Part shown: positions 89-6,340 of the stretch, piece after piece | Layout of the letters: each line of letters starts with the position of its first letter | Numbering within the stretch: position 1 is the first letter of the stretch | Origin: Sulfurovum sp. | Lineage (GTDB): Bacteria > Campylobacterota > Campylobacteria > Campylobacterales > Sulfurovaceae | Direction of reading: 5' to 3' | Length of the DNA: 64,000 bases | Assembly (NCBI GenBank): GCA_027062365.1 | Contig: JAMOTK010000055.1 | Span: 29,412 to 93,411, forward strand | The notes under the pieces: generated by a model | Seen by the model: the letters and a program-made list of their open reading frames with translations, nothing else | Databases searched by the model: none | What the model was told of the DNA's origin: nothing | Position numbers and translations under genes: made by a program

Positions 89-397
89 ATGAAACAAAAT
101 CACTTACACTTCATCTTACTCTTTGCTTTGCTTTTTAATATTGCTCATGCCTCTATTATTGCCATAGAAGATGACTGTCATGTGAAGTCCTCAATACATA
201 CTTATGTCTTAGAACAAAGCCAAAGTGTAGAGTGTGGTGACCTTTGTGATATGTATCATCTTTTTCACTTTATGGCGATTGTCCAAGGGCTTGAAGATAG
301 TGAATATTTAACATTTACTGCTCTTATGCCAACACATCAAATAAGTATGTATAACTCTATCTTTAGAAAGACTTCTATCAAGCCACCTATCGTTTAA
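89..397 (+). CDS. small secreted/periplasmic protein of unknown function, upstream of the efflux operon
   Basis: N-terminal signal peptide-like segment (MKQNHLHFILLFALLFNIAHA); upstream aaaaggaaag; same strand as the RND genes. Confidence 0.6.
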   Translation: MKQNHLHFILLFALLFNIAHASIIAIEDDCHVKSSIHTYVLEQSQSVECGDLCDMYHLFHFMAIVQGLEDSEYLTFTALMPTHQISMYNSIFRKTSIKPPIV

Positions 398-4659: not shown

Positions 4660-4678
4660 AAAATCTTATCTATTCTTT

Positions 4679-4757
4679 GTAGGTCGGAGTGTTCTCACTC
4701 CGACAAATATTTATGATGAGATTAAATTTATGTCGGAGTCGAAGACTACCGACCTAC
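4679..4757. repeat. REPIN/BIME-like pair of inverted REP hairpins
   Basis: GTAG-GTCGGAGTG-ttct-CACTCCGAC (4679-4704, perfect 9-bp stem) and, inverted, GTCGGAGT-cgaag-ACT(a)CCGAC-CTAC (4732-4757). Confidence 0.8.
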
Positions 4758-4976: not shown

Positions 4977-6257
4977 ATGAAAGAAATGCTTATTTTTGTG
5001 GATACGAAGAATAATAACAACAAGTTTTATAAATTAGAATTGCATGGGGATACGGTGCATATTGAATATGGTAGGGTCGGAGCGACGGCACAGAAGCTTT
5101 CTTGTCATGGGGGCGAGAGGGTGTTTAATCAGAAGATGCGACAGAAGTTACGCAAGGGCTATGTGAAATCGGCGATTGACCTTGCTTTGGATACAAGCAG
5201 TACGCATATTAATGAAAATATCTTGGAAATTGCCATGGAACAAATTTCTACCGATGATATTTCTAAGACGCTTATCCAAAAATTGGTGAAACAAAATATT
5301 CATAATATTACCACTCAAACGAAGATTGAATATGACATAGCCACAGGGTATTTCAAAACCCCTTTAGGCGTGATTACCCAAGAGGGAGTGAATCAAGCCA
5401 TAGAGTTACTGAACAAGATTGAAAGTATTGTTGCCAAAAGGACGGCGAAAAAAAGCAAAATGTTCCGAAAATATAACGAACGATACTTTAGGATTATTCC
5501 TACCAAGATTAGCAATTTACGCGAGTTTGAAAATCTCTTGCATAGCGAAGAAAAGCTTTCTACGCAGTTGGATATTTGTGTGAGTTTATTAGATGCCATT
5601 ACGATTGTAGAAGAAGAAAAAAAGAAAAAAGACCTCAAAGCAAAGCAAGAAAAAAGCCAAGAAAAAGTGCCTTTTGAAATCGTCTTTGAAGCTTCTATGT
5701 ATCAGCTAGAAGACAAGAAAGAATACCAACGCATTGAAGCCTATTTTGAAAAAAGCAAAAATAGGAAACATGGCAGATATGTCAATGGCTACAAAATCCA
5801 TAATATCTATAGCCTCTCTTTGGGGCAAGAAGCCAAGGAATATCGCCATGATTTGGACAATCAAATGGAGCTTTTTCATGGGACGAAGATTTCTAATCTC
5901 CTCTCTATCCTCAAAAGTGGGCTTCTCATGCCCAAGCAATCCCCAGGGAGTGTGACGGGCTATATGTTTGGTCAAGGGCTGTATTTCTCTGACCAAAGTA
6001 CGAAGAGTCTGAACTATTGTGATGGTATGTATTGGAACAATTCCCAAAAGCAAGAGAGTATTTATATGTTTATCGCCGATATTGCCATGGGAAACTACAA
6101 AGTCCCTGCCCATTCTGTGAGTGCAAATCCTACAAAGGGCTATGACAGCTACTGGGCAAAGCCCAAGCATTCAGGCGTACAAAATGATGAAATGATTGTC
6201 TTTGCAAACAATCAAATCAAGCTCAAATATATCTTAGAAATCCAAAGGAAACACTAA
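4977..6257 (+). CDS. poly(ADP-ribose) polymerase-like protein: WGR domain, PARP helical regulatory domain, ART catalytic domain
   Basis: IEYGRVGATAQ (WGR-like); KTPLGVITQEGVNQAIELLNKIE...ERYFRIIPTKI...LLDAITIV (PARP regulatory helical domain-like); ELFHGTKISNLLSILKSGL / VTGYMFGQGLYFSDQSTKSLNYC / NDEMIVFANNQIKLKYILEI (PARP catalytic motifs; H301, Y336, E405). Confidence 0.93.
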   Translation: MKEMLIFVDTKNNNNKFYKLELHGDTVHIEYGRVGATAQKLSCHGGERVFNQKMRQKLRKGYVKSAIDLALDTSSTHINENILEIAMEQISTDDISKTLIQKLVKQNIHNITTQTKIEYDIATGYFKTPLGVITQEGVNQAIELLNKIESIVAKRTAKKSKMFRKYNERYFRIIPTKISNLREFENLLHSEEKLSTQLDICVSLLDAITIVEEEKKKKDLKAKQEKSQEKVPFEIVFEASMYQLEDKKEYQRIEAYFEKSKNRKHGRYVNGYKIHNIYSLSLGQEAKEYRHDLDNQMELFHGTKISNLLSILKSGLLMPKQSPGSVTGYMFGQGLYFSDQSTKSLNYCDGMYWNNSQKQESIYMFIADIAMGNYKVPAHSVSANPTKGYDSYWAKPKHSGVQNDEMIVFANNQIKLKYILEIQRKH

Positions 6258-6340
6258 CTATGCAGTTTAAACCCTATGAAGAAGCCATACAAGAAAAAAA
6301 ATTTAATTAAGTGCTTCTGTTTATAGGGAGAATTATGATA

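What the first reader, a model, noticed from the sequence alone, without database searches (positions are those of the whole stretch)
4977..6257. Bacterial PARP with eukaryotic PARP2/3-like WGR-HD-ART layout and intact H-Y-E triad
Seen directly: an N-terminal WGR-like segment (IEYGRVGATAQ). A middle region reads like the autoinhibitory helical domain of DNA-dependent PARPs (KTPLGVITQEGVNQAIELLNKIE / ERYFRIIPTKI / LLDAITIV). The C-terminal ART domain carries ELFHGTK (H301), VTGYMFGQGLYFSD (Y336) and NDEMIVF (E405), ending in a PARP1-like IKLKYILEI. Established: the H-Y-E triad is the PARP polymerase signature, WGR senses DNA breaks, and PARPs are sparsely distributed in bacteria. Inference: a DNA damage-activated poly(ADP-ribosyl)ating enzyme in a Campylobacterota-like genome. 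No PARG or macrodomain eraser was seen in this window. The gene stands alone near a REPIN, which fits horizontal acquisition.
Basis: partly seen in the sequence, partly recalled or inferred. Interest (0 to 1): 0.85.

Follow-up and report, generated by a model that had tools for sequence, protein, structure and literature searches.

The report
Phage-related PARP in a Campylobacterota-like chromosome
The gene encodes a complete, apparently working bacterial version of the DNA-break-sensing enzyme PARP2; its closest relatives are carried by viruses of bacteria, and this genome shows no enzyme to undo its marks, so it is a real but not unprecedented find whose job in the cell is unknown.

Summary
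ORF 4977-6257 (+, 426 aa) encodes WGR, PARP regulatory (helical, HD) and PARP catalytic (ART) domains in that order, all above Pfam cut-offs, with H301/Y336/E405 invariant in 59 of 59 homologues. AlphaFold gives pLDDT 90.9, and the best solved-structure matches are DNA-bound human PARP2 and PARP1. Residues by which PARP2 reads 5'-phosphorylated breaks are nearly all conserved, as is the histidine that PARP1 needs for chain elongation. A DNA-end-activated poly(ADP-ribose) polymerase is therefore the best reading (inferred; no assay).

It sits at a lineage-specific breakpoint beside a true REPIN. Its strongly supported clade otherwise holds one Thioploca MAG contig and six phages or viral contigs. 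No macrodomain, ADP-ribosylglycohydrolase or PARG match was found in the 99.8%-complete genome, while macrodomains occur in many PARP-bearing phage records. Bacterial WGR-HD-ART PARPs, phage PARPs and PARP-bearing bacteria without known erasers are already described, so this is a new member of a known kind. Its physiological role (break response, phage conflict or host takeover) is open.

The parts
4977..6257 (+). Full PARP gene, 426 aa, WGR-HD-ART
   Evidence: tree; model
4977..5168 (+). WGR DNA-end-binding domain (residues 1-64; YGR motif at residues 31-33, 5067-5075)
   Evidence: Pfam PF05406 E=1.2e-9; PARP2 contact residues N127, N129, K130, R153, K183 correspond to N13, N15, K16, R33, K57
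5274..5630 (+). PARP regulatory / helical autoinhibitory domain (residues 100-218)
   Evidence: Pfam PF02877 E=1.2e-9; helices 94-113, 135-153, 161-173, 191-226 in the model
5715..6248 (+). ADP-ribosyltransferase (PARP catalytic) domain (residues 247-424)
   Evidence: Pfam PF00644 E=1.7e-30; profile to PARP1/2
5769..5771 (+). H265, aligned with PARP1 His826 / PARP2 His381 (acceptor site, chain elongation)
   Evidence: alignment, numbering, invariant 59/59, function PMC8602370
5877..5879 (+). H301, catalytic triad His
   Evidence: invariant 59/59
5982..5984 (+). Y336, catalytic triad Tyr
   Evidence: invariant 59/59
6189..6191 (+). E405, catalytic triad Glu
   Evidence: invariant 59/59
4676..4757 (.). 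REPIN-like dispersed hairpin in the upstream intergenic region
   Evidence: 18 genome-wide matches; DNA hairpin -22.6 kcal/mol, z=-7.7

Best explanation
The gene encodes a DNA-strand-break-activated poly(ADP-ribose) polymerase of the PARP1/PARP2 (Clade 1) type, of a lineage circulating among large phages and megaplasmids and now resident in the chromosome of one Campylobacterota-like species. Proposed mechanism: the WGR domain binds a 5'-phosphorylated DNA end or nick. This signal passes through N13/N15/R33 to the helical domain, which unfolds off the NAD+ pocket. The ART domain (H301, Y336, E405; acceptor residues H265, M330, K343, Y347) then transfers ADP-ribose from NAD+ to itself and/or nearby proteins or DNA ends and extends it into chains. 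Domain content, residue conservation, fold, purifying selection and phage kinship are shown here; DNA dependence, polymerisation and the cellular role are inferred.
For: All three domains above Pfam cut-offs. Family profile matches human PARP2 over its WGR-HD-ART length at E=3e-72, then PARP1, PARP3 and PARP4. AlphaFold pLDDT 90.9, pTM 0.86; top Foldseek hits are DNA-bound PARP2 7aeo (E=1.5e-25) and PARP1. Triad 59/59; WGR contact residues N15, K16, R33, K57 58/59 each and N13 51/59; elongation His 59/59, roles from PMC8190142 and PMC8602370. Purifying selection: differences from the Thioploca homologue by codon position 105/54/242, dN 0.20 with dS saturated. The same architecture in Herpetosiphon HaPARP and C. 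difficile CdPARP is DNA-dependent and makes PAR in vitro (PMC5966428). Phage kinship: clade of 8 with 100/99 support; PHROG 23333 E=2e-50 over the whole protein.
Against: No biochemistry. About 30 residues that PARP2 has on the acceptor side before the catalytic Glu are missing. WGR Trp is Tyr, and the PARP2 Tyr201 position has no clear counterpart. No eraser was detected in the genome, which is odd for a routine reversible repair signal. The physiological substrate is unknown.
Confidence: 0.78

Rival explanations
1. It is a break-activated NAD+-consuming effector in phage conflict: cut DNA during infection (by phage nucleases or host defences) hyperactivates an eraser-less PARP, which depletes NAD+ and stops the phage (parthanatos-like abortive infection).
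For: No macrodomain, ARH or PARG match in the whole genome. Singleton accessory distribution at a variable site. NAD+ depletion is an established antiphage strategy (PMC7272460, PMC12774641, listed).
Against: No PADLOC match, no neighbouring defence gene was recognised, and the nearest kin are carried by phages themselves, which argues for use by rather than against phages. Absence of erasers has been reported in other PARP-bearing bacteria without any such role being shown (PMC4245714).
Confidence: 0.2
2. It is a phage host-takeover enzyme (ADP-ribosylating or PARylating host proteins or DNA ends, as T4 Alt/ModA do for RNA polymerase) that was captured by the chromosome and is now domesticated or a passenger.
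For: Nested among phage sequences with strong support; whole-protein PHROG match; one sister contig carries a T4-type RIIA gene close to it; published suggestion for jumbo-phage PARPs (PMC7824862).
Against: Host-like codon usage and GC3, unlike the AT-rich sister phage, and no recognised phage genes beside it, so it is not a fresh prophage relic. Intact ORF with conserved catalytic residues. The direction of phage-host transfer is not proven by the tree.
Confidence: 0.3
3. It acts mainly as a mono-ADP-ribosyltransferase on DNA or RNA ends, PARP3-like, rather than as a chain polymerase.
For: Shortened acceptor-side region; most of the family has R instead of PARP1-like Y just before M330; PARP2 is described as also modifying DNA ends (PMC8190142).
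Against: H265, the counterpart of the elongation histidine, lies on a loop that PARP3 has truncated (PMC8602370) and is invariant here; the window protein itself keeps Y329-M330; the profile score is lower for PARP3 than for PARP2 and PARP1.
Confidence: 0.15

Closest known systems
Bacterial WGR-PARP_reg-PARP_cat enzymes (HaPARP of Herpetosiphon aurantiacus, CdPARP of C. difficile CD160)
   Same: Same three domains in the same order, H-Y-E triad, Y/W-GR motif; those two are active, DNA-dependent and make PAR in vitro (PMC5966428)
   Different: Those genomes also carry a PARG; this one has no match to any eraser family tested. No direct sequence comparison with HaPARP or CdPARP was made here.
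Phage PARPs (Xanthomonas phage XacN1 BBA65562.1; Klebsiella Stephanstirmvirinae phages; Cellulophaga phages phi4:1 and phi17:2; PHROG 23333)
   Same: Same architecture and triad; the window protein groups with the Klebsiella phage copies (40-41% identical) and three IMG/VR contigs (61-64%) with full support
   Different: The window copy is chromosomal with host-like codon usage; the Klebsiella phages carry a macrodomain gene 5-8 genes away
Human PARP2 / PARP1 (Clade 1, DNA-dependent)
   Same: Full-length profile match, WGR contact residues, triad, elongation histidine
   Different: About 20% identity in the structural alignment; W to Y in the WGR motif; no Tyr201 counterpart seen; about 30-residue shorter acceptor side; no zinc fingers or BRCT

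Membership tests
DNA-dependent (Clade 1) PARP | PARP catalytic (ART) domain with H-Y-E triad | tested here: met
   PF00644 106.5 bits; H301/Y336/E405 invariant 59/59
DNA-dependent (Clade 1) PARP | Helical autoinhibitory (PARP_reg) domain | tested here: met
   PF02877 38.8 bits, above cut-off; helical bundle in the model
DNA-dependent (Clade 1) PARP | WGR domain with 5'-phosphate and relay residues | tested here: met
   PF05406 38.6 bits; N13, N15, K16, R33, K57 conserved against PARP2 contacts in PMC8190142; W151 is Y31, Tyr201 equivalent not seen
DNA-dependent (Clade 1) PARP | Overall fold of DNA-bound PARP1/2 | tested here: met
   Foldseek 7aeo E=1.5e-25, 4dqy TM 0.66
DNA-dependent (Clade 1) PARP | Activation by DNA strand breaks | not testable with these tools
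   needs an NAD+ assay with and without nicked DNA
Poly- (not mono-) ADP-ribose polymerase | Acceptor-site residues for chain elongation | tested here: inconclusive
   H265, K343, Y347 invariant and M330 in 49/59, but the acceptor side is about 30 residues shorter than PARP2
Complete reversible PAR system | PARG, macrodomain or ARH eraser in the genome | tested here: not met
   PF01661, PF03747, PF05028, PF10021 without match; controls strong for the first two only; the PARG models found at most weak hits in the controls
Phage PARP lineage (PHROG 23333) | Full-length family match and nesting among phage sequences | tested here: met
   E=2.3e-50; clade of 8 at 100/99
Known anti-phage defence system | Match to PADLOC models | tested here: not met
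   no match for the PARP or two nearby genes

The most novel reading that the evidence does not exclude
A phage-lineage, eraser-less, DNA-break-activated PARP used by a bacterium as a one-way NAD+-burning switch: breaks made during infection or severe damage trigger irreversible PARylation and NAD+ loss, a bacterial counterpart of parthanatos. Alternatively the same lineage serves phages as a break-triggered takeover tool, with a recurrent HTH/AbrB-like protein as partner in other phage branches.
Probability: 0.2. Interest if true: 0.7.

Novelty: new member of a known kind. Interest (0 to 1): 0.45.

Why it matters
The in vivo role of bacterial PARPs is unresolved. This copy is compact (426 aa), has a strong structural model, and lies in a genome with no detected eraser, which makes break-activated PARylation and its cost to the cell unusually easy to test. 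Its placement among phage genes adds evidence that large phages and megaplasmids spread PARP2-type enzymes between bacterial phyla, which bears on how PARPs moved across the tree of life.

Tried and rejected
Rejected: prophage relic (no recognised phage genes adjacent, host-like codon usage); chance motif matches (all domains above cut-off); contaminant contig (gene lies inside a 93-kb contig between czcBA and a dedA-lpxH-argC-greA-surE block conserved in the genus); recent transfer from the sampled AT-rich phages (GC3 0.44 against 0.14); decayed gene (purifying selection). Led nowhere: the 16-codon ORF directly downstream (6260-6310, MQFKPYEEAIQEKKFN) has no convincing relative in the fetched loci; upstream and downstream intergenic DNA matches nothing convincing; no Rfam family; NCBIfam and PADLOC have no model for the protein; no paper linking PARPs to Campylobacterota was found in the held library. 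A clean empty site could not be shown: in congeners dedA is mostly followed by a DUF3817-like gene, metF and serB, and those genes are absent from this contig, so the site is a rearrangement breakpoint rather than a simple insertion. The phage-to-host direction cannot be proven from the midpoint-rooted tree.

Full report
Observation. ORF 4977-6257 on the + strand encodes 426 aa. Pfam gives WGR (1-64), PARP_reg (100-218) and PARP catalytic (247-398), each above its curated cut-off. The family profile built from 59 homologues matches human PARP2 over the whole WGR-HD-ART length at E=3e-72, then PARP1, with PARP3 and PARP4 lower. The triad H301/Y336/E405 is invariant in 59 of 59 sequences.

Structure. 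An AlphaFold model from an alignment of the window protein and 58 locus-derived homologues has mean pLDDT 90.9 and pTM 0.86. The best matches to solved structures are DNA-bound human PARP2 (7aeo, E=1.5e-25) and DNA-bound PARP1; moderate TM scores (about 0.5-0.66) with rmsd of about 7-10 A may reflect different domain arrangements.

Mechanistic residues. According to PMC8190142, PARP2 reads the 5'-phosphorylated end with Trp151, Lys130, Lys183 and Tyr201 and relays the signal through Asn127, Asn129 and Arg153. Counting through the alignment, these correspond to Y31, K16, K57, no clear counterpart, N13, N15 and R33. K16, K57, N15 and R33 are each in 58 of 59 homologues and N13 in 51 of 59. PMC8602370 reports that PARP1 His826 (PARP2 His381) belongs to the acceptor site, that its mutation shortens polymers, and that PARP3 has this loop truncated; the counterpart here, H265, is invariant in 59 of 59. 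Against a full PARP1/2-like acceptor side, about 30 residues that PARP2 has before the catalytic Glu are missing. Hence DNA-end activation and chain synthesis are well supported by sequence but remain inferred.

Origin. A search of the named collections gave Klebsiella Stephanstirmvirinae phages (40-41% identity), giant phages such as XacN1 and RAS14, and 0.3-1.2 Mb plasmids of Pseudomonas, Vibrio, Variovorax and others. Scans of genome and viral contigs added a Thioploca MAG contig (72%) and three viral contigs (61-64%). In a maximum-likelihood tree of 71 sequences, the window and Thioploca copies are sisters (100/99), next to the three viral contigs (100/99 for the five), with the Klebsiella phages outside (100/99 for the eight). 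One sister contig carries a T4-type RIIA gene close by. The gene is therefore of a phage-circulating lineage, though the direction of transfer is not proven. Codon usage and GC3 fit the host (0.44 against 0.37) and not the sister phage (0.14), so the transfer is not recent from such phages. Substitutions fall mostly at third positions (105/54/242 against Thioploca, dN 0.20, dS saturated), which means purifying selection.

Distribution. The protein was found in only this genome among 175 of its family and among 60 relatives; PARP_reg and PARP catalytic models each ring only in this genome among 397 of the phylum sample. In congeners dedA-lpxH-argC-greA-surE is a conserved block; beyond dedA most sampled congeners have a DUF3817-like gene, metF and serB, whereas here the PARP gene and a czcBA efflux operon lie there. 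The upstream gap holds a true REPIN (18 genomic matches; hairpin z=-7.7).

Erasers. No match to Macro (PF01661), ADP-ribosylglycohydrolase (PF03747) or PARG (PF05028, PF10021) was found in the genome, which is 99.8% complete; controls show the first two searches are sensitive, while the PARG models are weakly controlled. Among 37 PARP-bearing phage and plasmid records, 21 have a macrodomain match at E<=0.01 and 14 above cut-off, but none of the three sister contigs (possibly fragments) does. Perina et al. already noted three PARP-bearing bacteria with no eraser (PMC4245714), so this is uncommon but not new.

What is known. Bacterial WGR-HD-ART PARPs are documented; 72 bacterial PARP sequences in six phyla and twelve orders were listed in 2018, and HaPARP and CdPARP are DNA-dependent and make PAR (PMC5966428). 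Phage PARPs are documented too, including XacN1 BBA65562.1 in a jumbo-phage survey (PMC7824862) and phage phi4:1 (PMC4245714); PMC9503650 discusses viral PARP-like ARTs. I found no report of a PARP in Campylobacterota in the held library. The finding is thus a new member of a known kind, with a distinctive combination: chromosomal singleton, phage lineage, no eraser detected.

Function. Most likely a break-activated PAR polymerase; whether it serves the cell's own break response, phage conflict, or is a domesticated phage takeover enzyme cannot be decided from sequence. The lack of erasers mildly favours a one-way role. Identity as a PARP is close to certain; the DNA-end-activated polymerase mechanism I put at about 0.78; no single physiological role exceeds about 0.3-0.4.

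Noticed in passing
L029, L030, L034, L041, L043, L045-L048, L050, L052, L055, L057, L060, L062, L066, L068-L070 (downstream of the PARP gene): A fast-evolving protein, mostly 190-300 aa, lies on the same strand downstream of the PARP gene in 19 phage and Armatimonadota loci, within +1 to +3 genes in 16 of 19 (random placement mean 2.6, never reached in 20000 trials; loci not independent). Model: three-helix N-terminal domain 'FTAxDVTxxxR..H..VR' plus two AbrB-like hairpin units (pLDDT 84.9, pTM 0.50); a candidate partner or regulator. It is not seen at the window locus or its own clade.
   Followed up: partly
L003, L004, L013 (Klebsiella phages); L029: Macrodomain genes lie 5-8 genes upstream of the PARP gene in the Klebsiella phages (the L004/L013 copies score below the Pfam cut-off) and directly downstream in Armatimonadota L029, suggesting writer-eraser pairs in those replicons.
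   Followed up: partly
L005:7391-7984: A predicted RNA 2'-phosphotransferase (KptA family, itself ART-related) sits directly downstream of the PARP gene on the Pseudomonas sp. FeN3W megaplasmid.
   Followed up: no
window 89-397 and contig C55:24579-24887: Two similar 102-aa proteins flank a stretch holding a 391-aa gene (possible outer-membrane partner of czcBA), a 280-aa gene resembling PD-(D/E)XK-family transposases and a 626-aa gene, upstream of czcBA; looks like duplication around an insertion.
   Followed up: no
window 6260-6310: A 16-codon ORF (MQFKPYEEAIQEKKFN) starts 2 bases after the PARP stop; it may be the remnant of a lost downstream gene. No convincing relative in the fetched loci.
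   Followed up: partly
L032/L037 (Aneurinibacillus megaplasmid), L033/L035 (Bacillus sp. M6-12): Two divergent PARP genes on the same replicon or contig.
   Followed up: no
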